A DNA stretch of 64,000 bases from Agrococcus sp. KRD186 (GTDB lineage Bacteria; Actinomycetota; Actinomycetes; Actinomycetales; Microbacteriaceae), in the NCBI RefSeq assembly GCF_017168255.1, contig NZ_JABFAP010000001.1, forward strand, positions 719,087 through 783,086, given 5' to 3'. Shown piece by piece: positions 38,401 through 53,127 of the stretch. The stretch's first letter is position 1. Each line of letters starts with the position of its first letter. The position numbers and the translations under genes were made by a program. The notes under the pieces are model-generated. The model was not told the origin of the DNA, did not search any database, and saw only the letters and a program-made list of their open reading frames with translations.

Positions 38401-39460
38401 CGTCGACCACCGCGAGATCCCAGCCGTCGAGCGGCAGGCCGATGCGCACCGGCTCGCCGGGGGCGAGCCGCGCGGCGCACGCGACCACGGTCGCCTCGGT
38501 GGGGCCGTAGGTGTTCCAGACCTCGCGGCCCTCGGTCGCGAGCCGGTCGACGAGCTCTGGCGGGCACGCCTCGCCGCCGAAGATCAGCAGCCGCACGTTC
38601 TCGAGCGACGACGCGGGCCACAGCGACGCGAGCGTCGGCACGGTCGACACGATGGTGATGCCGCGCAGTGTCAGCCACGGACCCAGGTCCATGCCGCTGC
38701 GCACGAGCGAGCGCGGCGCGGGCACGAGGCAGGCGCCGTGGCCCCATGCCAGCCACATCTCCTCGCACGAGGCGTCGAAGGCGACCGAGAGGCCCGCCAG
38801 CACGCGGTCGCCCGGGCCGATCGGCTCGTCCTGCAGGAAGATGAGCGCCTCCGCGTCGACGAACGCGGCGGCCGAGCGGTGCGTCACGGCGACGCCCTTC
38901 GGCGTGCCGGTCGAGCCCGAGGTGAAGATGATCCACGCGTCGTCGTCGAGGCCCGGCTGCGTGGGGATCGGCATGCCCGCGGTCGACGGATGCGCGGGGG
39001 CGCCGTCGAAGAGCGCGGTCGCGGCGACGGGCGTGGCCGGGTCCACGGCCGGGCCGCGATCGCGGCGGCTGGGGGTGTACTGGCCGCTCCCGGTGATCAC
39101 GCCGACGACGTCGGCCTCGCCGAAGACGAGCTGCGCGCGCTCCTCGGGGTCGTCGGCGTCGACGGGCACGTAGGCGGCGCCCGCGGCCATGATGCCGAGG
39201 ATCGCGATGTACAGCCCTCTCGTGCCCGAGGGCATCCGCACCCCGACACGATCGCCGCGGGCGACGCCGTCGAGCGAGAGGCGGGCGGCGGTGCGGATGA
39301 CGGCGGCCATGAGCTCGCGGTAGCTCAGCGCTCCCTCGGCATCCTCGAGCGCCGAGCCATCGGGGTTCGAGAGCACGCTCGCGCGCAGCACGTCGAGCAG
39401 CGTTCGCGGAGGCGGGGCCAGATGTCCGCCCGCCAGCATTCCCCTTGGCATCTCGCCCAT
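35492..39460 (-). CDS. Pls/PosA-type non-ribosomal homopoly(amino acid) synthetase
   Basis: A 1,322-residue membrane NRPS. The adenylation domain (about 20-515) has core motifs FTSGSTGTPKG, FDASCEEMW, NTYGPTE and YRSGDMV. A carrier domain follows with the pantetheine serine in GGGSLAAAQ (Ser559). Instead of a condensation or thioesterase domain there are three units, each with hydrophobic helices and a hexapeptide-repeat (LbetaH) fold; the last ends near residue 1310. This is the layout of epsilon-poly-L-lysine synthetase and PosA. The residue aligned with GrsA position 239 appears to be Glu, which would suit a cationic substrate, but substrate prediction by eye is unsafe. The ATG at 39460 is chosen for GGAGG just upstream; in-frame starts exist 27 bases earlier and shortly later. 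Confidence 0.85.
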   Translation of the reverse strand: MGEMPRGMLAGGHLAPPPRTLLDVLRASVLSNPDGSALEDAEGALSYRELMAAVIRTAARLSLDGVARGDRVGVRMPSGTRGLYIAILGIMAAGAAYVPVDADDPEERAQLVFGEADVVGVITGSGQYTPSRRDRGPAVDPATPVAATALFDGAPAHPSTAGMPIPTQPGLDDDAWIIFTSGSTGTPKGVAVTHRSAAAFVDAEALIFLQDEPIGPGDRVLAGLSVAFDASCEEMWLAWGHGACLVPAPRSLVRSGMDLGPWLTLRGITIVSTVPTLASLWPASSLENVRLLIFGGEACPPELVDRLATEGREVWNTYGPTEATVVACAARLAPGEPVRIGLPLDGWDLAVVDEAGKPVADGGVGELIIGGVGLAHYLDPAKDAEKYAPLPSLGWERAYRSGDMVRFDREGLFFNGRVDDQVKVGGRRIELGEIEAALSSLPGVNAAAVVVQTTDAGNQVLVGYLGCEVETFDRQAANERLRDALPAAIVPVLALLPELPVRVSGKVDKKALPWPLEEEGAFDDGAAPGLAVLAADWQAVLGLPASDEADDFFALGGGSLAAAQLVTRIRQRDPEFTVADIYAYPRLGAMAAELASRASNGGREPASTHEVARTPRSAQWIQTLLGVPLFILSGMRWLLAALTLSTLLQAWTGFEALPTAQPWLLVLGLAVFATPFGRMGIAVVAARLLLRGLQAGDYPRGGSVHLRLWLAEQIAQQAGAVSLAGAPWVTLYARALGAHIGDDVDLHSVPPVTGMLRIGRGASIEPEVDLTGYWIDGDLVRIGAIRIGARSAVGARSTLAPGTRIGKGAVVEPGSAVFGRVRSGERWSGSPARRVGAAKAWWPAERPAHTSGWAWIYGLSAIALSLIPLLALLAGGAVLTLGIRGADGLGGVALGALAWLVPAALVAGLVLAGLIVLTVRLLAIGLTAGVFPVHSANGWRVWATERLLDLARTILFPLYASLFTPVWLRLLGARVGRDTEISTVLLIPKMTTVHTGAFLADDTLVASYELGGGWVRIAHAEIGERAFLGNSGMAAAGNRIPNDALVAVLSAAPRKSKKGSSWLGSPPVRLRRTPVEVDAARTYDPPLRLRVARALWELARFVPVLVTIAIGLGVLLTFLWMADAWGGLAAVLLSGVVMLAAGAVAAGVSTAAKWVLVGRIPATETPLWSSFVWRSETADAFVEMVAAPWFAQSASGTPALVWWLRSLGATIGHGVWCESYWLPEADLVTLGDASVVNRGCVVQTHLFHDRMMSIDTVTLEHGATLGPHSVILPAARIGEHATVGPASLVMRGELVPDRSRWSGNPIGPWREVKVADYHAVSR

Positions 39461-39490
39461 TCCGCCTCCGCGCACAGCTTCGCGCACGCA

Positions 39491-41258: not shown

Positions 41259-41354
41259 CGCGACCGCTGTGTGACGAACCGTGACCCGTGCAGCTACCCG
41301 TGCGGCGCGCACGCTGGGTACCGTGCGGGAGACCGACGAACCGGAAGGCCCACC

Positions 41355-42584
41355 ATGACCCGCATCGACGTCTCCCACGCAGGCAGCCTGCCGCGCACCC
41401 CGGAGCTCATCGCCGCCAACGCTGCGCGCTCGTTCGCCGAGGACGGACTCACGCTGCAGCGGACGCCCGAGTTCGAGGAGCTGCTCACGGCGGCGGTCGC
41501 CGACCTCGTGCGCAGGCAGCGTGAGCTCGGCATCACGATCATCGGCGACGGCGAGTACGGCAAGGCGATGTCGAACCCCTCCGACTACGCCGCCTGGTGG
41601 ACCTACGTCTTCCAGCGCGTCCAGGGGCTGGAGATCACCGGCGAGGACATCTTCACCGAGCCCATTCAGCGCTCGGCCCCCGGCGACGTGCGCCTGACCT
41701 CGTTCCCGGACCGCCGCGACTGGGTGCGCTTCCAGGACGCCTACCAGGATCCCGACCAGCCGGTGCTCAAGCAGCAGCCGGCGACGGCGTTCCCGGCCAC
41801 CACCGGTGCGCTGCATTACACCGGTCACGAGGCGCTCGCCACCGACATCGCGAACCTGCGCGCCGGCCTCGACAGCGCGGGCGCGGAACAGGGGTTCCTG
41901 ACCGCGCTCTCGCCGGGCTCGGCCGCGCGCATCGCGAACCGGCACTATGCGAGCGAGGAGGAGCACATCTGGGCCTGGGCCGAGGTGCTGCGCGAGGAGT
42001 ACAGGGCCATCACCGACGCCGGCTTCATCGTGCAGATCGACGACCCCTCGCTGGCCGAGAACTTCGACCAGATCAATCCCGAGCCGTCGATCGAGGACTA
42101 TCTGGCCTTCACCCGCATCCGGGTCGAGGCGCTCAACCACGCCATCCGCGGCCTGCCGGAGGAGCTCGTGCGACTGCACCTGTGCTGGGGCTCGTGGCAC
42201 GGGCCGCACACGACCGACGTGGCGTTCGGCGACATCGCCGAGCTGGTGCTCGAGGTCAACGCCGGCAGCTACTCCTTCGAGGCCGCCAACGCGCGCCACG
42301 AGCACGAGTGGCGCGTCTGGGAGCAGGTGGAGCTGCCCGCGGGCAAGCGCATCGCCCCCGGCGTGATCGGCCATGCCACCAACGTGGTCGAGCACCCCGA
42401 GCTGGTGGCCGACCGCATCGAGCGCTTCGCCCGCATCGTCGGCCCCGAGCGCGTGATCGCGTCCACCGACTGCGGGCTCGGCGGCCGCATCCATCCCTCC
42501 ATCGCCATCGCGAAGCTCGAGTCGCTCGGGCAGGGCGCCCGACTGGCCGAGGAGCGGCTGGGGGCCGCCGTCTCGATCATCTGA
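41355..42584 (+). CDS. MetE-like protein, cobalamin-independent methionine synthase II family
   Basis: A 409-residue TIM-barrel protein equal to the C-terminal catalytic half of MetE. The zinc-site region HLCWGSWHGPHTTD near residue 275 and the final CGLGGRIHPS motif near residue 377 supply the His/Cys/Glu/Cys set expected for thiol activation. The family includes epoxyalkane:coenzyme M transferases and methylcobalamin- or methyl-thiol-dependent methyltransferases, so the true methyl donor or electrophile is unknown. The ATG at 41355 has GGAAGG upstream. It sits opposite an oxygenase/ABC operon, sharing its terminator, and 9 kb from a full-length metE. Confidence 0.8.
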   Translation: MTRIDVSHAGSLPRTPELIAANAARSFAEDGLTLQRTPEFEELLTAAVADLVRRQRELGITIIGDGEYGKAMSNPSDYAAWWTYVFQRVQGLEITGEDIFTEPIQRSAPGDVRLTSFPDRRDWVRFQDAYQDPDQPVLKQQPATAFPATTGALHYTGHEALATDIANLRAGLDSAGAEQGFLTALSPGSAARIANRHYASEEEHIWAWAEVLREEYRAITDAGFIVQIDDPSLAENFDQINPEPSIEDYLAFTRIRVEALNHAIRGLPEELVRLHLCWGSWHGPHTTDVAFGDIAELVLEVNAGSYSFEAANARHEHEWRVWEQVELPAGKRIAPGVIGHATNVVEHPELVADRIERFARIVGPERVIASTDCGLGGRIHPSIAIAKLESLGQGARLAEERLGAAVSII

Positions 42585-42653: not shown

Positions 42654-43313
42654 TCAGCGCACCGTCACCGCGGTGCCGTCGACGACGACGTCGAACTCGA
42701 AGCCAGCTGTCTCGGCGTGCACCACCTGCAGCGCATCCGCACCGTCTCTGACCTCGACGCCGAGCGCCGTCAGGCGAGCGGACTCGCCCGCGACGTCGGG
42801 GGTGCGGCGGCGCAGCGCGACGAGCTCGACCGTCGGCAGCTCGTCGAGAGCGGGATGCGGGGTCGTTCCCCAGTCGATGAGGAAGGGCGGCTGATGCTCG
42901 TCGCGAGGGAGACCCAGGCGCCAGGCGAGCTCGCGCCCGTCGGGTGTGCGGCGCGAGAGCGGCTCGGGGTCGCCGTAGTCGTGGCCGGCCGCGCGCGCAC
43001 GCACGATGGTCGCATCGAGGTCGGCGGGCGCGATCGCGAAGCTCGCCACGCGCGGCGCGGCCAGCTGGTCGATGCCGAAGCGCGGCACGTCGGCCGCCGC
43101 CCGGCCCGCCTCGGCGTCGGGGCCGATGAGCTCGAGGTACTGCCGCACCCGCGCGCCGCCGCGCGTGAACGCGACGAGCGCGTTGGCGGTGCCGGTCGGG
43201 TGCCGGCCGCCGGCCGTCGCTCGCACGCCGGTGGTGCGCTCGAACGCCTCGACCAGCGCCGCCAGATCCGGACCGGCCAGCACGATGTGGTCGAGGGTGC
43301 GGGGCACGCCCAT
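42654..43313 (-). CDS. VOC/glyoxalase-like domain protein, last gene of the operon
   Basis: A 219-residue protein starting RTLDHIVLAGPDLAALVEAFERTTGV, the typical first strand and helix of a vicinal-oxygen-chelate module; it matches the larger Glyoxalase_3/VOC proteins with a second half at residues 110-219. Metal ligands would be H9 and Glu/His residues further on. It may isomerise, cleave or simply bind the product of the neighbouring monooxygenase. Its ATG overlaps the stop of the AhpD-like gene (ATGA), so it is translationally coupled as the eighth gene of the operon. Confidence 0.75.
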   Translation of the reverse strand: MGVPRTLDHIVLAGPDLAALVEAFERTTGVRATAGGRHPTGTANALVAFTRGGARVRQYLELIGPDAEAGRAAADVPRFGIDQLAAPRVASFAIAPADLDATIVRARAAGHDYGDPEPLSRRTPDGRELAWRLGLPRDEHQPPFLIDWGTTPHPALDELPTVELVALRRRTPDVAGESARLTALGVEVRDGADALQVVHAETAGFEFDVVVDGTAVTVR

Positions 43314-43909
43314 CAGACGACCTCCGGCTCGCCGAGCGAGAGCATCAGCCGGTTCGCCCAGTTGAAGAAGGCCGCACCGCTGATCTGATCGAGCAGGCCC
43401 ACGTCGTCGAGGCCGGCCGCGCGGAGGCGCTCGACGTGCTCGGCACCGAACGCCGCCGGCGTCGCCGTCAGCGCGGCAGCGGCATCCGCGATCGCATCCC
43501 AGCGCTCGTCGACGCGAGCGCCGACCCCCTCGTCGAGCAGCCGCTGCACGTCGTCGCCGCGGCCCGAGAGTCGCGACGCCGCGCGCGCGTGCACGGAGGC
43601 GCAGAAGACGCAGCCGTTGACGCGGGAGGCGGCGGCTGCGGCGAGCTCGCGCTCCCAGCGCGGGGTGCCGCCATCGTCGTTGTGGAAGATGTCGAGATCG
43701 GTGAGCGTGCGCGCCCGCAGCGCCTCGGGGTCGCGCGCGAGCAGCCGGAAGTACGGGTTCGTGGCGCGGTCGGGCTCCACCAGGCTGTCGCGCTGCGCCG
43801 CGGTGAGCTCGGCCTCGGGCACCGGCGGCGCCCACGGCACCCAGCCGAGGCTGCGCTGGGTGAAGGCGTCCGGGCGCCGCAGCGCCGGGTAGTCGGTGAT
43901 GGTGGTCAT
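43313..43909 (-). CDS. AhpD-like alkylhydroperoxidase-domain protein
   Basis: A 198-residue carboxymuconolactone-decarboxylase/AhpD-fold protein. The redox motif is NGCVFCASVHARAA, with the CxxC pair followed by the usual His. Known AhpD-like proteins reduce peroxides or act as disulfide carriers. I recall a conserved family of this size named after Agrobacterium locus Avi_7169 that occurs next to the same neighbours seen here; a profile search would settle it. The gene overlaps both neighbours by four bases. Confidence 0.8.
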   Translation of the reverse strand: MTTITDYPALRRPDAFTQRSLGWVPWAPPVPEAELTAAQRDSLVEPDRATNPYFRLLARDPEALRARTLTDLDIFHNDDGGTPRWERELAAAAASRVNGCVFCASVHARAASRLSGRGDDVQRLLDEGVGARVDERWDAIADAAAALTATPAAFGAEHVERLRAAGLDDVGLLDQISGAAFFNWANRLMLSLGEPEVV

Positions 43910-44559
43910 GCGCGGGCCTCCTCGAGCTCGGTGGCGGATGCGGTCGTGGCGTCTGCGGTCGTGTCGGCTGCCGTGGCGGCGAGCACGCGCAGGCCGTGCA
44001 CGAGCCGCAGCTGGAACGACAGGAAGGCGACCAGCTGGCTGAGCGAGACGAGCGCATCGGGGCCCCAGCCCGCGGCGGTCAGCGCACGCAGCGCCTCGGG
44101 CCGCGCGTCGCGCGGGTGCAGCACCAGCAGGTGCGCGTGCTCGAGCGCTGCCGCCAGTCGCTCCCCGAGCACGGAGCGGTCGACGCGGGCGACGGGGCCG
44201 GCGACCGCCTCCCGCTGCAGCGCGGGCTCGCGGTAGCCGCCGTACGGGCCGGATGCGCGGCCCGCGTCGGCTGCGCGTCGCACGGACGCGGTGACCCCGG
44301 GGGCCGCCGCGTCGTCCAGCAGCTCGAGGTAGAAGGCCGACGAGCGGGTGGGCGCGCCCTGGGCATCGTGCAGCAGGGCGACGTAGGCGGCGACCGCGTA
44401 GCGGTCCCCGAGCGGGAGCTCACCGGGGTCGGCCGGCTCGAGCAGCGCGAGGAAGCTCTGCTGCGCGTTCTCGCGCGCATCGGGCCGCGCTCTGCGGATC
44501 GTGTCGAGCCGGGATCCAGCGGTGATCTCGGCGAGGTGGTCGATGATGTCATGCGACAC
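43906..44559 (-). CDS. CMD-domain protein paired with the AhpD-like protein
   Basis: A 217-residue AhpD/CMD-fold protein with no CxxC: it has no cysteine at all, so it cannot do thiol redox chemistry and may be a partner subunit. Helices such as RYAVAAYVALLHD and ALVSLSQLVAFLSFQLRLVHGL are typical of the fold. I recall an Avi_7170-named family with this description beside the Avi_7169 family. The start is GTG at 44559, with AGGAGG 6 bases upstream, inside the end of the monooxygenase gene (11-bp overlap). Confidence 0.75.
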   Translation of the reverse strand: MSHDIIDHLAEITAGSRLDTIRRARPDARENAQQSFLALLEPADPGELPLGDRYAVAAYVALLHDAQGAPTRSSAFYLELLDDAAAPGVTASVRRAADAGRASGPYGGYREPALQREAVAGPVARVDRSVLGERLAAALEHAHLLVLHPRDARPEALRALTAAGWGPDALVSLSQLVAFLSFQLRLVHGLRVLAATAADTTADATTASATELEEARA

Positions 44560-45577
44560 GGCGTGCCTCCTGGGGTTCGATGGCGACGGGCCAGCCGAGC
44601 GCCGGCGCGACCTCTCGGGCGAACAGCTCGAGCGAGCGGTTGGTGATGGACGCGTCGGGGTCGACCGAGTGCACCTGGATGGAGACCTCGGTGGCGCCGG
44701 CGGCCACGGTGTCGGCCGCGAGCGAGTCGATGACCTCCGCCGGCGTGCCGAGGTGGGTCTCGCTGCGCACGAGCAGCTCGTCGAGCGAGAGGGAGCCGGG
44801 GGTGATGCCGTGCAGCTGCGCCACCTGCGCGCCGATCCCGGCCTCGGCATGCGCGCGCACGGCGCTGCGGTCGGCCGGGTCGACGACCACGACGCTGCGG
44901 GAGGCGAGGACGCGCGGCGCGACACCCGATGGCAGCGCGTCGAGGTAGGCGTCGACGAGCCGGCGCTGCACCTCCCACACCCGCGGCGGGACGTCGCCCG
45001 TGTGCTCGCTCGGGATCGGCTGCACGCGCGAGAGCATCAGGCCGTCGCCCTGCGCGCCGATCGCGCCGGCGCCCTCCGGCGAGAAGGTCGCCTGCCAGAT
45101 GCGGCCCTCGAGCCCGGTCTGCTGCTGCGGGTACAGCGATTGGTCGGCGGTGCCGGCGATGAGCGAGCGAAGCCGGACGAGCTTCGCGTCGTAGATGGCG
45201 CGACGCTGCCCGGGGTCCTCGCCGAAGGCGCTCAGCGTGCGGGGGCTGCCGCCGGTGCCCAGGCCCAGCTCGGCGCGGCCACCCGCGATCGTGTCGAGCA
45301 CGACCGCGTCCTCTGCGGCGCGCGCGGGATGCTCGTGCGCGAGCGTGAGGATGGCCGTGCCGAGCCGGATGCGAGCGGTCCGCGCGGCGGCCGCCGCGAG
45401 CAGCACGAACGGCGAGGGCAGACCGCCCTCGGCGCCGTCGAGGTGATGCTGTGCCACCCAGGCGGTCTCGAAGCCGAGCGACTCGGCCAGCTCGATCTGC
45501 TCGAGCGCGATGCGGTAGCGCTCCGCTGCAGCCGCGTCGTCGAGCACGCGGGTGAAGAATCCGATCGTCGGCGCCAT
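44549..45577 (-). CDS. FMN-dependent luciferase-like monooxygenase
   Basis: A 342-residue TIM-barrel flavin monooxygenase. The family start TIGFFTRVLDD, the AWVAQHHLDG stretch, RIRLGTAILTLAHEHPARAAEDAVVLDTIAGGRAELGLG and a Gly-Gly near residue 110 match bacterial-luciferase-like enzymes. Such enzymes use reduced FMN from a separate reductase and oxygen to cleave C-S, C-N or C-C bonds. I recall a subfamily named after Klebsiella KPN_01858 with exactly these neighbours and no known substrate. The ATG shares an A with the transporter stop (TGATG); a GTG one codon earlier is an alternative start. Confidence 0.8.
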   Translation of the reverse strand: MAPTIGFFTRVLDDAAAAERYRIALEQIELAESLGFETAWVAQHHLDGAEGGLPSPFVLLAAAAARTARIRLGTAILTLAHEHPARAAEDAVVLDTIAGGRAELGLGTGGSPRTLSAFGEDPGQRRAIYDAKLVRLRSLIAGTADQSLYPQQQTGLEGRIWQATFSPEGAGAIGAQGDGLMLSRVQPIPSEHTGDVPPRVWEVQRRLVDAYLDALPSGVAPRVLASRSVVVVDPADRSAVRAHAEAGIGAQVAQLHGITPGSLSLDELLVRSETHLGTPAEVIDSLAADTVAAGATEVSIQVHSVDPDASITNRSLELFAREVAPALGWPVAIEPQEARRVA

Positions 45578-47238
45578 CACGCCACCTCCAGCTGCCCGTG
45601 CTGTGTTGGCCGGCTGCGTCGGGCGTCTCGCAGCCAGTCGGGGGAGGGCACCGCATCCAGCAGCGCCCGCGTGTACTCGTGCTGCGGGCTCGACAGCACC
45701 TGCTGCGTCGTGCCCGTCTTGACCGCGCGGCCGTGGCGCAGCACCGTGACGGAGTCAGCGATGCGGCGCACGACCGCGAGATCGTGGGTGATGAACAGAT
45801 AGGTGAGGCCGAGATCGCGCTGCAGCCGCTCGAGCAGGTCGAGGATCTGCGACTGCACCGTGACGTCGAGCGCCGAGACCGCCTCGTCGAGCACGACCGT
45901 CTGCGGCTCGATGATGAGCGCGCGGGCGATGGCGACGCGCTGGCGCTGCCCGCCGGAGAGCTCGCGCGGCAGTCTGCCGGCGACTTCTGCGGGCAGTGCG
46001 ACCTGCTCGAGCGCGGTGGCGACGCGCTCCGCGAGCACGCGGCGATCGCGCACGCCGCCGTGGGCGAGCGGCAGGTTCAGCAGCGGCTCGCCCACCGTCT
46101 GCCCGATCGAGCGGCGCGGGTCGAGCGAGGCGTAGGGGTTCTGCGAGACGAGCTGCACCGCGTGCCGCAGGCGTCGGCTGCCGCGCTCGGCGAGCACGTC
46201 GAGCTCGCCGATGCGGATCGATCCGGCGGCGGGCGTGTGGAAGCCCGCGAGCGCCCGGCCGATCGTCGTCTTGCCGGAGCCGGACTCGCCCACCAGCGCA
46301 TGCGTCGTGCCACGAGCGATCCCGAGGCCGACCTCGTCGACGGCGCGGAACGCATCCGTGCCCTTCCCGTACTCGTGGACGAGGCCCTCGACCATCACGA
46401 ACGGCTCGACCGCGAGGCGCTCGGGCCGAGGCGCCGCGTCGGTGAGCGCGGGCGCGTCAGCGAGCAGGGTGGCCGTGTATTCGCGCTGCGGGTCGAGCAG
46501 CACCGAGCGCGTCTCGCCGACCTCCTCGAGCCTGCCGCCTCGCAGCACCGCGATGCTGTCTGACCGCTCGGCCGCGACCGCGAGGTCGTGCGTGATCAGC
46601 AGCACGCTGGATCCGAGCTCGGCGCGCAGGTCGTCGAGCAGGTCGAGGATGCGCCGCTGCACCGTCACGTCGAGCGCGCTGGTGGGCTCGTCGGCGATGA
46701 TCAGGTCGGGCTCGAGGGCCACTGCTGCCGCGATCAGCGCCCGTTGCCGCATGCCGCCCGAGAGCTCATGCGGGTACTGCCGCGCGCGCCGCTCGGGGTC
46801 GTCGAGGCCGACCCGCTCGAGCAGGTCGAGGACGCGACGGCGGATGGCCTCCTTCGTGCCCCAGCGGTGGATGCGCAGCGGCGCGGCGACCGAGGCGCCG
46901 ATCGTCTGCACGGGGTTGAGCGAGGTGCCGGGATCCTGCGGGACGAGCGCGATGCGCGCGCCGCGCAGCTGCTGCAGCGCGCGGGCGGGCAGCTTCGCCA
47001 GGTCGAGGTCGCCGCCGGCGAGCTGCAGCCCGATGCTGCCGCGCTCGATGCGGCCGCCGGCCGCCAGCAGCCCGATGATCGAGTGGCCGATGGTGGTCTT
47101 GCCGGAGCCGGACTCGCCGACCAGGGCGAGCACCTCGCCGCGCTGCAGCTCGAGGTTGACGCCGTGCACGGCGGTGTGCCGCTCGCCGCGAGCGCGATAG
47201 GAGATGGCCAGGTCATCGATCGTGAGCAGTGTGCTCAT
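45577..47238 (-). CDS. ABC transporter, double ATP-binding protein (DppD-DppF fused)
   Basis: A 553-residue protein with two complete ABC domains. First: Walker A GESGSGKTT (41-49), signature LSGGMRQRA (159-167), Walker B LIIADEP. Second: Walker A at 317-325, signature LSGGQRQRV and VVLDEA. The second Walker B reads LDEAVSALD, as is common in these fusions. It powers an importer of the dipeptide/oligopeptide/nickel class at the inner face of the membrane. It overlaps both neighbours by ATGA or TGATG. Confidence 0.9.
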   Translation of the reverse strand: MSTLLTIDDLAISYRARGERHTAVHGVNLELQRGEVLALVGESGSGKTTIGHSIIGLLAAGGRIERGSIGLQLAGGDLDLAKLPARALQQLRGARIALVPQDPGTSLNPVQTIGASVAAPLRIHRWGTKEAIRRRVLDLLERVGLDDPERRARQYPHELSGGMRQRALIAAAVALEPDLIIADEPTSALDVTVQRRILDLLDDLRAELGSSVLLITHDLAVAAERSDSIAVLRGGRLEEVGETRSVLLDPQREYTATLLADAPALTDAAPRPERLAVEPFVMVEGLVHEYGKGTDAFRAVDEVGLGIARGTTHALVGESGSGKTTIGRALAGFHTPAAGSIRIGELDVLAERGSRRLRHAVQLVSQNPYASLDPRRSIGQTVGEPLLNLPLAHGGVRDRRVLAERVATALEQVALPAEVAGRLPRELSGGQRQRVAIARALIIEPQTVVLDEAVSALDVTVQSQILDLLERLQRDLGLTYLFITHDLAVVRRIADSVTVLRHGRAVKTGTTQQVLSSPQHEYTRALLDAVPSPDWLRDARRSRPTQHGQLEVA

Positions 47239-48086
47239 GCTGTTGCCTCTCTGACGGCGGATGCGACCCGATTGGCCGACAGCACGACGGCTGCGACGAC
47301 CAGTCCGGGCAGGGTGGTGAGCCACCAGGCGGTGGCGACGTAGTCGCGGCTCTCGGCGATCAGCAGCCCCCACTCGGGTGTGGGCGGCGGCGCGCCGTAG
47401 CCCAGGAAGCCGAGCGTGGAGATCTGCAGGATCGCGCTGCCGAACTGCAGTGCGGCGAGCGCCAGCACGGCGCCCAGCGAGTTGGGCAGCACGTGCCGCC
47501 AGAGCACGCGGAGGAACGAGCCGCCGGAGCCGAAGGCCGCCTCCACGTAGTCGCTGCGCCGCACCTTCAACACCTGCGAGCGGGCCAGCCGGGCGAAGAC
47601 GGCGATCGAGGTCACGCCGACGGCGATCGCGGCATTCGTGACGCCGAAGCCGAGCAGCACGATGACGCTCAGCGCCAGCAGCAGGCCCGGGATCGCCAGC
47701 AGCACGTCGACGACCCGCATGAGCGCCTCGTCGGCGAGGCCGCCGGTGGAGCCCGCGAGCACACCGATCGCGGTGCCGACGACCAGCCCGACGAGCACCG
47801 CGATGGCAGCGCCCGAGAGCGAGTTGCCGGCGCCGAAGATGACGCGGGCGAGCAGGTCGCGTCCGGTGGCGTCGGTGCCGAAGGGATGCGCGCCGCTCGG
47901 CGCCTGCAGAGCGTGCAGCGCCTCGCCCGCGACCGGGTCCTGGCTCGTGAACAGCCAGGGCAGGATCGCCCACGCCAGTGCGATGGCGAGCACCGCGACC
48001 GCGAGCACGAGGGTGAGGGCGGGCCGCCGGCGCGCGGCAGCGCGCTCGGTGCGCCGGGGGAGCAGGACCGCTGCTGTCGCGCTCAT
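47235..48086 (-). CDS. ABC transporter permease, DppC-like
   Basis: A 283-residue permease of the oligopeptide class with an N-terminal cytoplasmic tail, a first helix at about 24-45, then five more. The ATPase-docking EAA loop is VEAAFGSGGSFLRVLWRHVLPN. The conserved GTDATGRDLLARVIFG stretch near residue 70 marks the DppC/OppC type. Overlaps by four bases on both sides. It forms the channel with the DppB-like partner. Confidence 0.9.
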   Translation of the reverse strand: MSATAAVLLPRRTERAAARRRPALTLVLAVAVLAIALAWAILPWLFTSQDPVAGEALHALQAPSGAHPFGTDATGRDLLARVIFGAGNSLSGAAIAVLVGLVVGTAIGVLAGSTGGLADEALMRVVDVLLAIPGLLLALSVIVLLGFGVTNAAIAVGVTSIAVFARLARSQVLKVRRSDYVEAAFGSGGSFLRVLWRHVLPNSLGAVLALAALQFGSAILQISTLGFLGYGAPPPTPEWGLLIAESRDYVATAWWLTTLPGLVVAAVVLSANRVASAVREATA

Positions 48087-49018
48087 GCGTGCACCGCCTT
48101 CCGCAGCCGGGGGTCGATCGCCGGGGCGACGAGGTCGACCGCCAGGTTGATGGCGACGAAGCCGACGGCCGAGATGACGACGATGGCCTGCAGCACCGGT
48201 GTGTCGCGGGTGGCGACCGCATCGACGGTGAGCCGGCCGAGGCCGGTGCGGGCGAAGACGGTCTCGGTGACCACCGCGCCCGCGATCAGCTCGCCGAACA
48301 GCACCCCGGCGATGGTCAGCGTCGGCAGCAGCGAGTTGCGCGCGACCTCCTTCGACAGCAGCCAGCGGGGGCCGGCACCGCGCGCCCGGGCGACGGCGAT
48401 GAAGGGTTCGGCGACGGTGTCGTCGATGCTGCGGATGAGCACCTGCGCCAGCGGCGCCGCGATCGGCACGGCGATCGTCAGCACCGGCAGCACGAGTGCC
48501 TCGACCGGGTTCGCGTTGATCACCGGGATCAGGCCGAGCTGGAACGAGAAGACCTGCAGCAGCACGATGCCGAGCCAGAAGACCGGCACCGACACGAGCA
48601 GCGGCGGCAGCGAGCGGAAGGCGCGCCGGAGCCACTCGGCCGACGAGAAGGTCGCAGCGACGGCGACGCCGGTCGCCAGCAGCACGGCGACGAGGAAGCC
48701 CAGCGATGCCAGTGTGACGGTGGCGGGCAGCGCCGCGGCCAGCAGCGACTCGACCTCGGCCCCGTTCTGCAGCGACGTGCCGAGGTCGCCGCTGAGGAAG
48801 CCCGCTGCCGACTGCCACAGCTGCACCCAGACCGGCTGATCGGTGCCGTAGACGAGGCGCAGCTGATCGAGCTGCGCCTCGGTCAGCCCGAGCTCGGGGC
48901 TCGCGTACCGGGCGACGATGGCGTCGCCCGGCAGCGCGTGCAGGAGCAGGAAGGCGAGCACGAACGTGGCGACCACGACCAGCGCTGCCTGTCCCGTGCG
49001 GCGGAGTGCGTAGGGCAT
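48083..49018 (-). CDS. ABC transporter permease, DppB-like
   Basis: A 311-residue permease with six helices. The N terminus (MPYALRRTGQAALVVVATFVLAFLLLHALPGD) is the DppB/OppB start, and the EAA loop reads FIAVARARGAGPRWLLSKEVARN. Compared with textbook DppB it is slightly short in the periplasmic loop at 45-90. It follows the lipoprotein gene after only 7 bp and overlaps the next permease gene. Confidence 0.9.
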   Translation of the reverse strand: MPYALRRTGQAALVVVATFVLAFLLLHALPGDAIVARYASPELGLTEAQLDQLRLVYGTDQPVWVQLWQSAAGFLSGDLGTSLQNGAEVESLLAAALPATVTLASLGFLVAVLLATGVAVAATFSSAEWLRRAFRSLPPLLVSVPVFWLGIVLLQVFSFQLGLIPVINANPVEALVLPVLTIAVPIAAPLAQVLIRSIDDTVAEPFIAVARARGAGPRWLLSKEVARNSLLPTLTIAGVLFGELIAGAVVTETVFARTGLGRLTVDAVATRDTPVLQAIVVISAVGFVAINLAVDLVAPAIDPRLRKAVHA

Positions 49019-49025
49019 GGCCCCC

Positions 49026-50681
49026 TCAGCCCTCTAGCCAGACGCCCGAGAACGTGGGGCGGCCGACCGACTCGGTGCCGAAGCCGTGCACCACCGGCTG
49101 CAGCCCGTAGACCTGCGGCTCCTCGAAGAAGGGCAGCACGTAGGCGTGCTCGGTCAGGTGCGCCTGCACGGCGGCAGCGGCGGCGGTCCGCTGCTCGGCG
49201 GCGGGTGCGGAGGCGACCTCGCGCAGCAGCGACTCGAGCTCGGCGTCGATCGGCTCGCCCGACTCGTCGGCGTTGCGCAGCGTGTCGCGGTTCTCGATCG
49301 AGTACTGGCTCTTGATCACGTCGTAGTCGGCCCGCCCCACCATCGAGTGGTAGATCTGGATCTGCTCGATGTCGGCCGCGGCAGCGGTCTGCGCGGCCTG
49401 GTCGCCCTGGAAGAGCTCGAGCTCCACGCCGACCTCACGCAGCTGCTGGGCGACGAGCGTGATGACGTCGCGCGAGCGGGGCTGCGGCAGCGCCTCGTTC
49501 ACGACCAGGTGCAGTCGCTCGCCGTCGCGCACCCGGATGCCGTCGTCGCCGACCTCCCAGCCGGCCTCGTCGAGCAGTGCCCTTGCGCGCTCCTGGTCGA
49601 ACTCGTAGGCTCCGACCTGCTCCGCGTAGCCCAGCGCTGTCCGGCTCAGCGAGGAGGTCGCGAGCGGATAGCCGTCCGAGAAGATCGAGTCGACGATCTC
49701 CCGGCGGTCGATGCCGGCGATCAGCGCCTGCCGCACGCGGATGTCCTGCAGCAGCGGGTGGTCGAAGCGGAAGCTCAGCCCGTTGTTGACGCCGTTGGTC
49801 TGCTCGGCGACGATCTCGAGCCCGGCTGCGGCCACCTGCGCCTCGTGCTGCGGCTCGACCTGCCGCGCGATGTGCCCCTGGCCTGAGACGAGCGAGCCGA
49901 TGCGCACGCTGTCCTCCGGGGCGATCACGATGTCGACGGCGTCGACGTAGGGGCGACCCTGGTTCTGAGCCGACGGCGGTGCCCACGCATAGTCCTCGCG
50001 CGCGGCGAGTCGGATCGTCGTGCCGATCTGCTCGGACTCCACGACGAAGGGCCCGGCCCCTATCACCTCGCTGGCGTTGCCGGGGCCGAAGCCCTCGGAG
50101 TCGAGCTCGAGCGACGCATCCGCCAGCAGGCCGGAGTTGTTGGTCGACACCGCCTGCGCGAAGCCGGGTGCGGGAGCGCTGAAGTGGAAGCGCACCGTGT
50201 CGTCGTCGACGACCTCACCGCGCTCGTAGTTGTTGATCGCCTCGCTGACGATGAGCGCTCGATCCTGGTCGCCGAGGCCGTACAGGTCGATGTTCGCGAC
50301 CACGTTCTCGGCCGTCAGCGGGGTGCCGTCCGAGTAGGTGATGTCGGTGCGGATGTCGAAGGTGTACTCGGTGGCGTCCGCGTTGACCTCCGGCAGCGCC
50401 GTGGCGACCCAGGGCTCGAGCTCGAGCGTCTCGGGCACCTGGTGCAGCAGGCGCACGGTGAGGTTGTTCACGAGCGCGCCGTTCGGGTAGAAGCCGGCGC
50501 TCGGCGGGTAGAGCGTCGAGTAGGCCTGGTGCTCGAGGTACGTGAGCGTTCCGCCGGTGACGGGGCCTCCGTCGCTGCTCTGGGGCGCCGACGCCTGGCT
50601 GGAGGAGCACGCGCTCAGGGCGAGGGCCAGAGCGGCGACGCCGGCGAGTGCTGACAGACGCGGATGCGGTGTGCGGTTCAC
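49026..50681 (-). CDS. ABC transporter substrate-binding lipoprotein
   Basis: A 551-residue extracytoplasmic binding protein of the family 5 (peptide/opine/nickel) type. The signal peptide runs to the lipobox LSAC, with the lipidated Cys at about residue 25, followed by a Ser/Gln linker. Features such as GGTLTYLEHQAYSTLYPP, YTFDIRTDITYSDGTPLTAENVV and VRQALIAGIDRREIV are family hallmarks. The start is the GTG at 50681: GGAGG stands exactly 5 bases upstream, inside a frame that could also start at an ATG 12 bases earlier. I recall a KPN_01854-named family for such proteins. It is the first gene of the eight-gene operon. Confidence 0.85.
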   Translation of the reverse strand: MNRTPHPRLSALAGVAALALALSACSSSQASAPQSSDGGPVTGGTLTYLEHQAYSTLYPPSAGFYPNGALVNNLTVRLLHQVPETLELEPWVATALPEVNADATEYTFDIRTDITYSDGTPLTAENVVANIDLYGLGDQDRALIVSEAINNYERGEVVDDDTVRFHFSAPAPGFAQAVSTNNSGLLADASLELDSEGFGPGNASEVIGAGPFVVESEQIGTTIRLAAREDYAWAPPSAQNQGRPYVDAVDIVIAPEDSVRIGSLVSGQGHIARQVEPQHEAQVAAAGLEIVAEQTNGVNNGLSFRFDHPLLQDIRVRQALIAGIDRREIVDSIFSDGYPLATSSLSRTALGYAEQVGAYEFDQERARALLDEAGWEVGDDGIRVRDGERLHLVVNEALPQPRSRDVITLVAQQLREVGVELELFQGDQAAQTAAAADIEQIQIYHSMVGRADYDVIKSQYSIENRDTLRNADESGEPIDAELESLLREVASAPAAEQRTAAAAAVQAHLTEHAYVLPFFEEPQVYGLQPVVHGFGTESVGRPTFSGVWLEG

Positions 50682-50784
50682 GAGGACCTCCATAAGCGGT
50701 GGTTGGTACGCCTCTAAGACAAGCCGATTGCGGCAGCACGCGCATCCTGGGCTGCAACATGGCGTCACGCTCCTGCAGACGACG

Positions 50785-50820
50785 ACGGCGCGCGCCGCCA
50801 CGGAGGCCGGCGCGCGCCGT
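50785..50820 (-). terminator. 12-bp perfect hairpin after metE
   Basis: ACGGCGCGCGCC (50785-50796) and GGCGCGCGCCGT (50809-50820) pair exactly around a 12-nt loop. The hairpin lies 12 bp past the metE stop on the minus strand and about 100 bp before the lipoprotein gene, so it should separate the methionine operon from the ABC/monooxygenase operon. No U run follows. Confidence 0.65.
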
Positions 50821-50832
50821 GAGGGCGGAGGC

Positions 50833-53127
50833 TCAGCCGACGGCGACCACCTCGCGCGCCCGTCGAGCCGCTGCCACCAGCCGGGTGAGGCTCGCCACCG
50901 TCTCGTCGTAGCCGCGCGTCTTCAAGCCGCAGTCGGGGTTGACCCACAGCAGTCCCTCCGGGATGCCGGCGGCGGCGGTGGCGAGCAGCTCGTCGAGCTC
51001 CTCGTGCCCTGGGACGCGAGGGGAGTGGATGTCGTAGACGCCCGGACCGATGCCGCGGTCGAAGCCGTGCGCGGCCAGCGCGTCGACCACCTCCATCTTG
51101 GAGCGTGCCGCCTCGATGCTCGTGACGTCCGCATCCAGGCCGTCGATCGCATCCACCACCGTGTTGAACTCCGAGTAGCAGAGATGCGTGTGGATCTGGG
51201 TGGCCGGCGCCGCACCGCCGGTGGCCAGCCGGAAGGCGCCCACTGACCAGTCGAGGTAGGCGGGGCGGGCCTCGCGGCGCAGCGGCAGCAGCTCGCGCAA
51301 CGCCGGCTCGTCCACCTGCACGATGCGGACGCCCGCGGCCTCGAGATCGGCGATCTCGTCGGCCAGCGCGAGCGCCACCTGGTCAGCGGTCTCGCCCAGC
51401 GGCTGGTCGTCGCGCACGAACGACCACGCGAGGATCGTGACCGGTCCGGTGAGCATGCCCTTGACGACCTTGCTCGTCAGCGACTGCGCATACGCGATCC
51501 ACTCGACGGTGAACGCCGCCGCCCTGGAGACGTCGCCCCACAGGATCGACGGCCGCGTGGCCCGCGAGCCGTAGGACTGCACCCAGCCGTGCTCGGTCGC
51601 GGCGAAGCCCTCGAAGTGCTCGGCGAAGTACTGCACCATGTCGTTGCGCTCCGGCTCGCCGTGCACGAGCACGTCGAGTCCCAGCTGCTCCTGCAGCTCG
51701 ATCACGCGGCGCACCTCGGCGCGGAGCACCTGCGTGTAGCCGCTGTCGTCGAGCTCGCCTCGCGCGTGCCGTGCGCGGGCGGTGCGGATGTCGCCGGTCT
51801 GAGGGAATGAGCCGATCGTCGTGGTCGGCAGCGGCGGCAGCTCGAGCGCCTCGCGCTGCAGCCGGGCGCGCTCGTCGTACGTCGCGCGCTGGCGCGCCTC
51901 GCTCGGCAGCGACGCGAGTCGAGCGCGGACGGAGCCGTCGCGCACGCCGGGTGCAGCGGCGCGGTCCGCGACCGCGGCGCGCGCGTCGGCGAACGCCTGC
52001 TCGTCGAGGGAGCCGGTGAGCGCTGCGGCCAGTGCGACGACCTCCGCCACCTTCTGGTCGGCGAAGGCCAGCCACGATCGCAGTCGGGGGGCGAGCGACT
52101 GCTCTGCCGCCACGTCGTGCGGCACGTGCAGCAGGCTCGTGCTGGTGCCGACGGCGACGGGGCCGCGAGCCGCGATCTCCCGCAGGCGCTCCAGGGCGCC
52201 GTCGAGGTCGGTGCGCCAGACGTTGCGGCCGTGCACCACACCGGCGACCAGCGGCGTCGAGCCGGTCGCCGGCGCGCCGCCGCGCACGAGGTCGATCGCG
52301 AGTGCGTCGACGGCGTCGGCCAGCGACTCGACGCGACCGGCAGCATCCCCGTGTCCGACATGCAGCAGCACCAGCAGTCCGGCTGCGCGCAGGGCCTCGG
52401 CACCGGCGCGGGCGACGGCCTGCAGCTCGGCGAGCTCGACGTGGTCGAAGTCGGCGATCAGCGCGGGCTCGTCGAGCTGGACCCAGGTGGCGCCGGCCGC
52501 GGCCAGCGCCTCCCCGAGCGCGCCGTAGGCGGGCACGAGCCGTTCGGCGAGCTCGATGGGCCGGATGCCCGCCGCCTTCGAGAGCGCGAGATAGGTGGCG
52601 GGCCCGACCACGACCGGGCGTCCGTGCACACCGGCCCGGCCGGCCTCGACGAAGCGGTCGACGATGCGGGTGTCGGCGAAGGAGAAGGTCGTCTCGGCGT
52701 CGAGCTCCGGCACCAGGTAGTGATAGTTGGTGTCGAGCCACTTGGTCATCTCGAGCGGCGCGGTGTCGCCATGCCCGCGCGCCAGCAGCCACTCGCCGGC
52801 GAGCCCCTCCGGCAGGCCGCCGCGAAGCCGCGGGGGCACGACGCCGAAGGTGAGGGTGGCGTCGAGCACGTGGTCGTAGTGCGCCGCCTCGATCGGGATC
52901 GAGGCGTCATCGGCTCGCAGGCCGAGCTCGCGCAGGCGCTCGAGGTCGGCCAGCCGGTTCGCGCTCGCCGCGGCGTGGAAGGCGGCGGCGTCGATGGTGC
53001 CGCGCCAGTGCGCCTCGAGCGCGCGCTTGAGCTCGCGGCGGCGGCCGATGCGGGGATAGCCGAGGATCGTGCCGCCGGGGAAGATCGGTGCCGCGGCGTG
53101 CTGCTCGCGGGTGCTGATGGTCGTCAT
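50833..53127 (-). CDS. metE: Cobalamin-independent methionine synthase
   Basis: A full-length (764-residue) MetE. It transfers the methyl group of 5-methyltetrahydrofolate-triglutamate to homocysteine. The zinc ligands are H648 and C650 in HTHLCYSEF, E672 in TSIEAARS and C733 in NPDCGLKTRG. The N-terminal folate domain starts GYPRIGRRRELKRALEAHW, the family form. The ATG overlaps the metF stop by four bases. It is the last gene of patB-metY-metF-metE and is followed by a hairpin. No cobalamin riboswitch is visible in front of it. Confidence 0.95.
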   Translation of the reverse strand: MTTISTREQHAAAPIFPGGTILGYPRIGRRRELKRALEAHWRGTIDAAAFHAAASANRLADLERLRELGLRADDASIPIEAAHYDHVLDATLTFGVVPPRLRGGLPEGLAGEWLLARGHGDTAPLEMTKWLDTNYHYLVPELDAETTFSFADTRIVDRFVEAGRAGVHGRPVVVGPATYLALSKAAGIRPIELAERLVPAYGALGEALAAAGATWVQLDEPALIADFDHVELAELQAVARAGAEALRAAGLLVLLHVGHGDAAGRVESLADAVDALAIDLVRGGAPATGSTPLVAGVVHGRNVWRTDLDGALERLREIAARGPVAVGTSTSLLHVPHDVAAEQSLAPRLRSWLAFADQKVAEVVALAAALTGSLDEQAFADARAAVADRAAAPGVRDGSVRARLASLPSEARQRATYDERARLQREALELPPLPTTTIGSFPQTGDIRTARARHARGELDDSGYTQVLRAEVRRVIELQEQLGLDVLVHGEPERNDMVQYFAEHFEGFAATEHGWVQSYGSRATRPSILWGDVSRAAAFTVEWIAYAQSLTSKVVKGMLTGPVTILAWSFVRDDQPLGETADQVALALADEIADLEAAGVRIVQVDEPALRELLPLRREARPAYLDWSVGAFRLATGGAAPATQIHTHLCYSEFNTVVDAIDGLDADVTSIEAARSKMEVVDALAAHGFDRGIGPGVYDIHSPRVPGHEELDELLATAAAGIPEGLLWVNPDCGLKTRGYDETVASLTRLVAAARRAREVVAVG

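What the first reader, a model, noticed from the sequence alone, without database searches (positions are those of the whole stretch)
42654..50681. Eight-gene uptake-and-oxidation operon of unknown substrate
Substrate-binding lipoprotein, two permeases, fused double ATPase, luciferase-like monooxygenase, cysteine-free CMD protein, AhpD-like CxxC protein and VOC protein follow each other; all but the first gap are start/stop overlaps. I recall KPN_01854/KPN_01858 and Avi_7169/Avi_7170 named families as a co-occurring but uncharacterised set. Import followed by FMNH2/O2 cleavage, peroxide handling and VOC chemistry suggests salvage of an organosulfur or similar nutrient. The place between a MetE-like gene and the methionine operon supports a sulfur link, but only by context. 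The operon has no reductase; the FMN reductase at 26051 or a distant one would have to serve.
Basis: partly seen in the sequence, partly recalled or inferred. Interest (0 to 1): 0.8.

Follow-up and report, generated by a model that had tools for sequence, protein, structure and literature searches.

The report
Sulfur-starvation operon for scavenging organosulfur compounds
An eight-gene bacterial operon that imports and oxidises an unknown small molecule turns out to be built almost without sulfur-containing amino acids and to sit among sulfur genes in many bacteria, so it most likely scavenges sulfur from an organic compound when sulfur is scarce, although the compound itself is still unknown.

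Summary
The operon is real and as described (42654-50681, minus strand): TIGR04028 lipoprotein, two permeases, fused ATPase, TIGR04027-type luciferase-like monooxygenase (LLM; below that model's cut-off), TIGR04029 CMD protein, TIGR04030 AhpD-like protein, Glyoxalase_3 VOC protein. CMD and AhpD flank the LLM in 76 of the 80 best related loci, over two phyla.

The sulfur link goes well beyond context. The eight proteins hold 9 Cys+Met in 2,666 residues; LLM, binding protein and permeases are the poorest of their families in this genome, and the depletion recurs in 57 of 58 scored loci. Some related loci carry CysB-type regulators, MsuE-type reductase, taurine importers, SfnB- and SsuD-like proteins or M20 hydrolases. 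The likely Corynebacterium glutamicum counterpart (cg2678-cg2674) is published as under the sulfur regulators McbR and CysR.

Most likely role: scavenging a blocked, anionic organosulfur compound under sulfur starvation by import, FMNH2/O2 cleavage and CMD/AhpD handling. Substrate and chemistry are inferred. Poly(acrylic acid) cleavage, published for the Klebsiella LLM (PDB 8K74), is probably not its physiological role. The likelier flavin reductase is an MsuE about 634 kb away, not the gene at 26051.

The parts
49026..50681 (-). Substrate-binding lipoprotein (SBP_bac_5), TIGR04028
   Evidence: 802.9 bits (cut-off 468.5); 1 Cys (lipobox) and 1 Met in 550 residues; GTG start behind GGAGG
48083..49018 (-). 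ABC permease 1 (NikB/OppB type)
   Evidence: 0 Cys/Met besides the start
47235..48086 (-). ABC permease 2 (NikC/OppC type)
   Evidence: 1 Met besides the start
45577..47238 (-). Fused double ATPase (GsiA/YejF type)
   Evidence: 0 Cys, 2 Met besides the start
44549..45577 (-). FMN-dependent luciferase-like monooxygenase of the TIGR04027 clade (alternative GTG start at 45580)
   Evidence: 385.5 bits (cut-off 412.9, not reached); closest solved structure 8K74, 47% identity; lowest Cys+Met of 18 LLM domains in the genome
43906..44559 (-). CMD-like protein, TIGR04029, no Cys or internal Met
   Evidence: 209.6 bits (cut-off 100.75)
43313..43909 (-). AhpD-like peroxidase-related protein, TIGR04030; E88, C100, C103, H107 invariant
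   Evidence: 282.1 bits (cut-off 233.15); 23 of 23 sequences
42654..43313 (-). VOC protein, Pfam Glyoxalase_3; D8 H9 H38 N44 Y59 E61 R121 invariant
   Evidence: 123.3 bits (cut-off 25.1); 14 of 14 sequences
50682..50770 (-). Leader conserved in the five Agrococcus sequences aligned, with GTGACGNNNNGTTGCAG (50752-50768; exact in four of five) and GCTTATGGAGGT before the start (five of five); possible promoter/operator, function untested
   Evidence: alignment of five; one search found no convincing second site in this genome

Best explanation
The operon is a sulfur-starvation scavenging system. (1) The lipoprotein captures, and the ABC transporter imports, an anionic organosulfur compound whose amino end is blocked or absent, so not a free dipeptide and probably not glutathione [inferred]. 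(2) The LLM, given FMNH2 by an MsuE-type reductase encoded elsewhere, uses O2 to oxidise the sulfur or cleave the C-S bond, leaving an oxidised thiol and a carbonyl fragment [inferred]. (3) CMD and AhpD act as one complex; the AhpD CxxC site, alone or with CMD, reduces or resolves the sulfenic, disulfide or peroxide product [pairing supported by fusions and constant adjacency; chemistry inferred]. (4) The VOC protein, found beside only some of the relatives, treats the leftover carbonyl part [inferred]. (5) The sulfur goes to cysteine and methionine, for which MetY-, MetE- and MTHFR-type genes lie next door here [context shown]. The sulfur-starvation role is the well-supported part (my estimate 0.88). 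Oxidative C-S cleavage is about 0.6. Blocked (N-acyl or peptidyl) S-substituted cysteine conjugates as the substrate class are about 0.3.
For: Composition: 9 Cys+Met in 2,666 residues, 2 of them the AhpD CxxC pair. In this genome the operon's LLM domain is lowest of 18, the SBP lowest of 3, the two permeases lowest and second lowest of the 30 scored out of 36 found; the other two SBP_bac_5 proteins and their neighbouring permeases are not depleted (1.4-4.8%). Pooled core proteins are below flanking genes in 57 of 58 scored loci, means 1.03% and 2.59%. In 6 of 7 annotated plasmid loci the flanks are 2.1-4.2%; in the seventh, the A. ampelinum sulfur island, the flanks are themselves poor at 0.87%. 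PMC7661421 says that proteins of sulfur acquisition lack cysteine (passages). Neighbours: taurine importer, SsuD-like LLM, SfnB-like protein (L022); TauA-like protein (295.5 bits, cut-off 304.25), TauB- and TauC-like genes and a Glyoxalase_3 gene directly before LLM-CMD-AhpD (L071); CysB-family regulators (L024, L081, over the PRK12684 cut-off); MsuE-type reductase directly after AhpD (L066, 209.9 bits, cut-off 212.5); SfnB-like and NtaA/DmoA-type LLM, both Cys/Met-poor (L179); NtaA/DmoA-type LLM and SufS-like PLP enzyme in Agromyces (L072 scanned; similar frames in L061, L076); M20 hydrolases (L078, L026). Regulation: cg2678-74 is in the McbR regulon and less transcribed in a cysR mutant (PMC2580772); cg2674, 2675, 2677, 2678 are marked McbR and annotated as CMD, duplicated ATPase, permease, periplasmic subunit (PMC2807442); cg2678 is listed with ssu genes and metY (PMC6892785). 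TIGR04028 and TIGR04030 ring over cut-off in the C. glutamicum control genome. KPN_01858 and TauC are both higher in iron-limited K. pneumoniae (PMC7194016). Partnership: CMD and AhpD are one reading frame in Enterobacterales and, in another phylum, in Brevibacterium. Substrate: R450 is invariant in 27 of 27 SBPs at or within one residue of DppA Asp408, and the Arg355 position is Ala, Ser or Pro; the same Asp-to-Arg change was read as making dipeptides and glutathione unlikely for HbpA2 (PMC3295651, passages).
Against: No substrate, binding, expression or growth datum exists for this operon. Among the 58 scored loci, the 41 with the Opp-type importer are at 0.38-1.29%, but of the 17 without it seen upstream 12 are at 1.1-3.4% (L091 above its flanks) and only 5 at 0.55-0.84%; part of this is that short cores weigh the conserved AhpD residues more, but the trio alone may serve another purpose there. 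Single permeases can be ordinary (2.2% in L022 and L023), and an importer standing alone in a small genome is not depleted in two of its four frames (L192, 2.2-2.3%). Three genomes have importer plus CMD-AhpD without an adjacent LLM (L176-L178), so LLM cleavage cannot be the step common to all. The PAA paper reports activity with NADPH alone and none with FMN or FMNH2, against an FMNH2-dependent enzyme if taken at face value. By fold the LLM is nearest, after 8K74, to 2I7G, luciferases and RslO1, not to the sulfonate enzymes (best 50 listed). That cg2678-74 is the orthologue rests on gene order, annotation and control hits without coordinates; I did not see its sequence. No shared regulatory site was found. 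The loci are not independent: 17 of 58 are Brevibacterium.
Confidence: 0.72

Rival explanations
1. Aminopolycarboxylate or metallophore breakdown: a NikA/EppA-like binding protein imports a metal chelate (EDTA-like compound, opine, natural metallophore) and the LLM cleaves a C-N bond, as EmoA/NtaA do (recalled).
For: NikA-type binding proteins, staphylopine-binding CntA and EDTA-binding EppA are among the structural matches, NikA and CntA also by sequence; NtaA/DmoA-type LLMs occur near several loci; several Arg are invariant in both LLM and SBP; KPN_01858 rises on iron limitation.
Against: Cys+Met depletion, McbR/CysR control of the likely counterpart, and CysB-, SfnB- and taurine-type neighbours point to sulfur. 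PMC10863075 calls the C-S enzymes CmoJ, YxeK and DszA sequence homologues of one another; that they fall in the NtaA/DmoA family is recalled.
Confidence: 0.08
2. Poly(acrylic acid) depolymerisation, as published for the Klebsiella LLM PCX02514 (PDB 8K74).
For: PMC11354265 reports a 34% fall in PAA molecular weight, products by HPLC-MS, lower activity of five pocket mutants and a 1.97 A structure; the window LLM is a clear relative (266.9 bits).
Against: Reported kcat is 0.00214 per second, fitted against NADPH; FMN and FMNH2 gave none. In the parts I read (abstract and section 4) the operon is not considered. The gene sits with a small-solute importer in bacteria from soil, plants, people and other sources (host column), and Cys/Met depletion has no reason under this reading. 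The position of that paper's His253 is His in only 2 of the 9 sequences.
Confidence: 0.03
3. A peptide importer with antioxidant partners: uptake of ordinary peptides, with CMD/AhpD as general peroxide defence.
For: The transporter is of the dipeptide/nickel class; AhpD keeps the E-C-C-H residues.
Against: Both dipeptide anchors are lost in all 27 binding proteins aligned; the other two SBP_bac_5 proteins of this genome are not Cys/Met-poor; the CMD gene is present in 15 of 15 LLM-bearing genomes among 120, adjacent in 14.
Confidence: 0.06
4. A sulfur-limitation system in which CMD-AhpD is the substrate-acting core (reductive release from a disulfide-, thiosulfonate- or sulfoxide-like compound) and the LLM is an optional extra.
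For: Importer plus CMD-AhpD without an adjacent LLM in L176-L178 and, by annotation, cg2678-74; CMD-AhpD fusions in two phyla.
Against: CMD and AhpD flank the LLM in 76 of 80 loci, though that set was chosen through the LLM, and other flavin monooxygenases or flavoproteins lie close by in some loci.
Confidence: 0.2

Closest known systems
TIGR04027/04028/04029/04030 set (KPN_01858, KPN_01854, Avi_7170, Avi_7169 families)
   Same: Same four families in the same order in one operon
   Different: The LLM scores below the TIGR04027 cut-off; a Glyoxalase_3 VOC gene is added at the end. The models carry no function (kinds 'hypoth_equivalog' and 'hypoth_equivalog_domain')
Corynebacterium glutamicum cg2678-cg2674 (McbR regulon)
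   Same: Periplasmic subunit, permease, ATPase fused in duplicate and carboxymuconolactone decarboxylase among its genes; sulfur-regulated
   Different: No LLM or VOC among the genes listed in the passages seen; function unknown; sequence not seen here
Klebsiella PCX02514, PDB 8K74
   Same: Same LLM clade, 47% identity over the fold; the Arg10, Arg125, Ser186 and Arg187 positions are kept in 41, 39, 41 and 40 of 41 relatives
   Different: Published as a PAA-cleaving, NADPH-only enzyme; operon not considered in the parts read
Bacillus subtilis Cmo (ytm) S-alkylcysteine and Yxe S-(2-succino)cysteine salvage
   Same: LLM-family monooxygenases recover cysteine sulfur from blocked S-substituted cysteines, with deacetylation (PMC10863075, part 1 of 3 read; PMC9706529 and PMC12757645, listing only); ABC import and operon content recalled
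   Different: No CMD/AhpD pair (recalled); two monooxygenases, not one; M20 genes only beside some relatives of this operon
SsuEADCB / TauABCD / SfnG-MsuE sulfonate and sulfone systems
   Same: Sulfur-starvation role, FMNH2-type monooxygenase with separate reductase (recalled); related genes co-located in some genomes
   Different: Importer is SBP_bac_5 type; LLM nearest to luciferase-type structures; CMD/AhpD absent from those systems (recalled)
EDTA/NTA systems (EppABCD-EmoA, NtaA; recalled)
   Same: SBP_bac_5-type importer beside an LLM-family monooxygenase; EppA is a structural match
   Different: LLM of another family; sulfur signature; CMD/AhpD

Membership tests
TIGR04028 (SBP_KPN_01854) | score over the curated cut-off of 468.5 | tested here: met
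   802.9 bits, full length
TIGR04027 (LLM_KPN_01858) | score over the curated cut-off of 412.9 | tested here: not met
   385.5 bits, full length and best family by far (next 66.2); counted as a diverged relative, not a member by that rule
TIGR04029 (CMD_Avi_7170) | score over the curated cut-off of 100.75 | tested here: met
   209.6 bits
TIGR04030 (perox_Avi_7169) | score over the curated cut-off of 233.15 | tested here: met
   282.1 bits
AhpD-type peroxidase | Glu-Cys-Cys-His relay (E118, C130, C133, H137 of M. tuberculosis AhpD, recalled) | tested here: met
   E88, C100, C103, H107 with the same spacing, invariant in 23 of 23
AhpD-type peroxidase | peroxidase activity with a thiol donor | not testable with these tools
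   needs protein
Sulfur-starvation scavenging system | Cys/Met-depleted proteins | tested here: met
   0.34%; LLM, SBP and permeases lowest of paralogues; 57 of 58 related loci below flanks
Sulfur-starvation scavenging system | induction by sulfur limitation / control by a sulfur regulator | tested here: inconclusive
   not measured for this operon; published for the likely C. glutamicum counterpart
Sulfur-starvation scavenging system | growth on an organosulfur compound as sole sulfur source | not testable with these tools
   needs mutants
DppA-type dipeptide-binding protein | Asp (mature 408) and Arg (mature 355) binding the dipeptide ends | tested here: not met
   R450 invariant (27 of 27) at or next to the Asp; A/S/P at the Arg position
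Two-component FMNH2-dependent monooxygenase | dedicated flavin reductase in the operon | tested here: not met
   none within the operon; MsuE (239.8 bits, cut-off 212.5) about 634 kb away
S-alkylcysteine (Cmo) pathway | CmoO and CmoJ monooxygenases with acetylation and deacetylation | tested here: inconclusive
   the operon has one LLM and no M20 gene; some relatives add NtaA-type LLM and M20 genes; CmoO/CmoJ sequences were not compared

The most novel reading that the evidence does not exclude
A distinct class of organosulfur salvage in which a CMD-AhpD complex, rather than a classical sulfonate-cleaving enzyme, is the catalytic hub that turns an imported, blocked organosulfur compound into usable sulfur, with exchangeable importers (Opp type, branched-chain amino-acid type, TauABC type) and exchangeable flavin monooxygenases plugged in. 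It would be spread over at least two bacterial phyla and would replace the published poly(acrylic acid) function of the LLM.
Probability: 0.3. Interest if true: 0.78.

Novelty: new variant of a known kind. Interest (0 to 1): 0.62.

Why it matters
The work links a structurally solved enzyme with a doubtful published function to sulfur starvation, ties an unexplained operon of the C. glutamicum McbR regulon to a broad family, and suggests that Cys/Met poverty can flag and delimit unknown sulfur-scavenging operons. Substrate discovery is narrowed to blocked, anionic organosulfur molecules.

Tried and rejected
Riboswitch: no Rfam match at E up to 0.1 in 38000-60000. Promoter/terminator scan of 50500-51000: nothing. 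The leader motif GTGACGNNNNGTTGCAG has one other exact match in the genome, which by eye lies in a hairpin-like sequence between genes; in the window there were four matches with up to two mismatches against 2.86 expected; so no regulon was found by this route. FMN reductase at 26051 as partner: no NCBIfam match at E up to 0.001 and not Cys/Met-poor (3.21%). Ordinary dipeptide or glutathione import: anchors lost. VOC protein: no solved relative by sequence at E up to 0.01. Literature: searches for KPN_01858, Avi_7170/Avi_7169/KPN_01854, CMD domain + LLM + alkylhydroperoxidase + ABC transporter, LLM + sulfur starvation, the family names and 8K74 showed me no paper assigning a sulfur role to this set; of the papers listed I opened only those named in this report. 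Subscription papers (e.g. the original McbR regulon paper, recalled) are not in the library. My gene caller for unannotated loci was crude; many S-poor frames listed may be spurious, and I relied only on those that matched a family.

Rows dropped before counts; of 79 loci (L031-L109; L030, a very near relative with operon proteins 93-99% identical, was left out) 58 were scored; those under 58% G+C, with fewer than four called flank genes or with 300 or fewer core residues were dropped; where only the LLM was found, only the LLM was counted. The pooled core may include the VOC gene where it is close enough; flank genes of seven plasmid loci were picked by hand from the annotation; short or cut genes were left out, and also one 750-residue rhodanese of L024 that is itself poor (0.27%); L028 has no annotation; 6 of 36 permease domains had no locus and were not scored; ATPase, CMD, AhpD and VOC paralogues were not compared. 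The symporter value of 7.91% came from a wrong frame (3.96%). The Fisher test used counts read and treats the two Agrococcus LLMs below the cut-off (385, 397 bits) as present. One search kept the best 80 of 552, so the loci lean towards close relatives and are chosen through the LLM.

Full report
What is there. Seven junctions: a 7-base gap after the lipoprotein, then overlaps of 1 to 11 bases. NCBIfam confirms the recalled families: TIGR04028 (802.9 bits), TIGR04029 (209.6) and TIGR04030 (282.1), all over their cut-offs. The monooxygenase is best in TIGR04027 (385.5) but under that cut-off (412.9). The last gene is a Glyoxalase_3 VOC protein. The genome is very near Agrococcus baldri: the best related named locus (L030, A. 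baldri IAM 15147) has the LLM at 99% and the other operon proteins at 93-98% identity.

How widespread and how fixed. In 76 of 80 both CMD and AhpD lie beside the LLM; of the four others one ends 1.3 kb after it. In 51 of 80 the whole SBP-permease-permease-ATPase set lies upstream on the same strand, and several of the rest are cut by the contig end. Hosts include Agrococcus, Brevibacterium, Microbacterium, Agromyces, Nesterenkonia, Acetobacter, Gluconobacter, Rhizobium, Microvirga, Variovorax, Pectobacterium and Dickeya and, on plasmids, Pantoea, Rhizobium, Ensifer, Erwinia, Paracoccus and others (124 records). In a sample of 120 genomes of the window's family (the window's own included), CMD is over its cut-off in 17; AhpD in 16, all within the 17 (in the seventeenth the locus is cut by a contig end); the SBP in 13, 12 of them within the 17; the LLM in 13, or 15 with the two Agrococcus scores below the cut-off, all within the 17 but in one genome (G071) far from the CMD gene (Fisher p about 3e-17 for LLM and CMD). 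CMD and AhpD are one reading frame in Enterobacterales (for Pantoea) and in Brevibacterium, which makes a physical partnership likely.

Modules exchange. Where the Opp-type importer is missing, the trio can follow a branched-chain amino-acid type importer (Belnapia, a Craurococcus MAG, a Microbacterium, a Rhodospirillales MAG, a proteobacterial MAG; also L193) or TauABC-like genes with a Glyoxalase_3 gene (Sinirhodobacter). Conversely L176-L178 have importer plus CMD-AhpD with no LLM beside them, and one small genome has the importer without the other three families (L192). L177, L178 and L192 carry a divergent FAD-NAD(P)-binding protein and a short-chain dehydrogenase next to the importer.

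Sulfur signature. Apart from start codons the eight proteins contain 9 Cys+Met in 2,666 residues, 0.34%; two of the nine are the AhpD CxxC. Within the same genome the LLM domain (0.35%) is the lowest of 18, the SBP domain (0%) the lowest of 3, and the permeases (0% and 0.58%) the two lowest of 30 scored; the other four protein types were not compared. The other two SBP_bac_5 proteins and the permeases beside them are at 1.4-4.8%, so neither G+C content nor transporter class explains it. In 58 scored loci of other genomes the pooled core averages 1.03% against 2.59% for flanking genes and is lower in 57 (Wilcoxon p about 4e-11; not independent, 17 of 58 being Brevibacterium). On annotated plasmids the flanks are 2.1-4.2% in six loci and 0.87% in the seventh, which is a sulfur island; two of the operon permeases there are at 2.2%. 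Against one role for all: the 41 scored loci with the Opp-type importer are at 0.38-1.29%, but of the 17 without it seen upstream 12 are at 1.1-3.4% and 5 at 0.55-0.84%. PMC7661421 says that proteins of sulfur acquisition lack cysteine, and that two FMN-dependent monooxygenases made on a sulfonate had few sulfur amino acids (passages).

Sulfur neighbours. In Allorhizobium ampelinum S4 the set lies with an SfnB-like protein, an SsuD-like LLM and a taurine importer. CysB-family regulators adjoin two loci; an MsuE-type reductase follows AhpD directly in Microvirga (209.9 bits, just under its cut-off); L179 has a Cys/Met-poor SfnB-like protein and NtaA/DmoA-type LLM some kilobases from the operon; Agromyces has a Cys/Met-poor NtaA/DmoA-type LLM (over its cut-off) and a SufS-like PLP enzyme (under it) (L072 scanned); a Microbacterium and a Pantoea have M20 hydrolases. 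The SfnB-, SsuD- and SufS-like labels are below those families' cut-offs. In the Agrococcus loci the operon stays next to methionine genes.

Published regulation. PMC2580772 states that cg2678-74 of C. glutamicum, of the McbR regulon, is less transcribed in the cysR mutant; PMC2807442 lists cg2674 as carboxymuconolactone decarboxylase, cg2675 as duplicated ATPase, cg2677 as permease and cg2678 as periplasmic subunit, all marked McbR; PMC6892785 lists cg2678 with ssu genes and metY among genes raised on starvation (passages only). C. glutamicum rings over cut-off for TIGR04028 and TIGR04030. I infer, without having seen the sequence, that cg2678-74 is the counterpart, without an LLM. In K. pneumoniae KPN_01858 and TauC are both higher on iron limitation (PMC7194016, one section read).

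Structure and substrate. The LLM model (pLDDT 90.0) matches 8K74 best, then 2I7G, luciferases and RslO1. 8K74 is the Klebsiella enzyme claimed to cleave poly(acrylic acid) with NADPH only, kcat 0.00214 per second (PMC11354265, abstract and section 4). Its Arg10, Arg125, Ser186 and Arg187 correspond to residues kept in 41, 39, 41 and 40 of 41 relatives, which fits an anionic ligand; its His253 is not conserved. The PAA role does not fit an importer-linked, sulfur-poor operon. The SBP model (pLDDT 89.0) is a standard SBP_bac_5 fold with many near-equal matches (dipeptide, glutathione, opine, nickel and EDTA binders), so fold alone does not name a ligand. In sequence, Arg450, invariant in 27 of 27, stands at or one residue from DppA Asp408 (the loop is one residue shorter), and the Arg355 position is Ala, Ser or Pro. 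In HbpA2 proteins the same Asp-to-Arg change was taken to make dipeptides and glutathione unlikely (PMC3295651, passages). AhpD keeps Glu88, Cys100, Cys103 and His107 in 23 of 23; the VOC family keeps His9, His38 and Glu61 in 14 of 14.

Reductase. None is in the operon. The candidate at 26051 matches no NCBIfam family and is not sulfur-poor. A gene about 634 kb away matches MsuE over its cut-off (239.8 bits) and has one Cys and no internal Met.

How it most likely works. Under sulfur starvation the lipoprotein captures a blocked, anionic organosulfur compound; the ABC transporter imports it; the LLM with FMNH2 and O2 oxidises the sulfur or the adjoining carbon; CMD-AhpD resolves the oxidised sulfur or peroxide; the VOC protein handles the carbonyl remainder where it is present; the sulfur enters the methionine and cysteine pathway. 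Shown: gene set, conservation, sulfur-poverty, context, and fusions that support the CMD-AhpD pairing. Inferred: ligand class, every chemical step. The nearest mechanistic parallel is the Cmo/Yxe salvage of S-substituted cysteines (PMC10863075, part 1 of 3), which shares logic and the LLM superfamily, not the specific families.

Verdict. It is a new variant of a known kind: a sulfur-starvation scavenging operon of unknown substrate with a distinctive CMD-AhpD pair.

Noticed in passing
L192:4166-7130, L177:14404-17467, L178:890-3983: A divergent pair, an FAD-NAD(P)-binding protein (Pfam NAD_binding_9, 697-800 aa, no NCBIfam family for the two scanned) and a short-chain dehydrogenase, sits next to the importer in genomes without an adjacent LLM; it may replace the LLM.
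   Followed up: partly
window 49026-50681, residue 447 of the lipoprotein: The only internal Met of this nearly sulfur-free lipoprotein is conserved in 26 of 27 relatives, three residues before the invariant Arg450, so it may touch the ligand.
   Followed up: no
L063:5962-8592: A Cys/Met-poor TonB-dependent receptor (0.57%) lies beside the CMD gene in Gluconobacter, a possible outer-membrane route for the substrate; a similarly poor frame lies at the same place in L087.
   Followed up: partly
window 41346-42584: A MetE-like protein matching only the C-terminal catalytic domain model is conserved, convergent with the operon, in six of six other Agrococcus loci; Cys+Met 0.97% with the start I chose, 1.76% for the longest frame.
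   Followed up: no
L096:9980-12342: Bartonella tamiae keeps the LLM-CMD-AhpD trio without the Opp-type importer directly upstream.
   Followed up: no
window 2-16612: A 5,536-residue open frame covers the first quarter of the window; not examined.
   Followed up: no
window 35492-39487: A 1,331-residue protein that, by eye, joins an adenylation/carrier part to acyltransferase-like repeats and membrane segments; kept near the operon in L031 and L032.
   Followed up: no
L024:16343-18595: A 750-residue protein with four rhodanese stretches in Variovorax, 0.27% Cys+Met, near a CysB-type regulator and the trio.
   Followed up: partly
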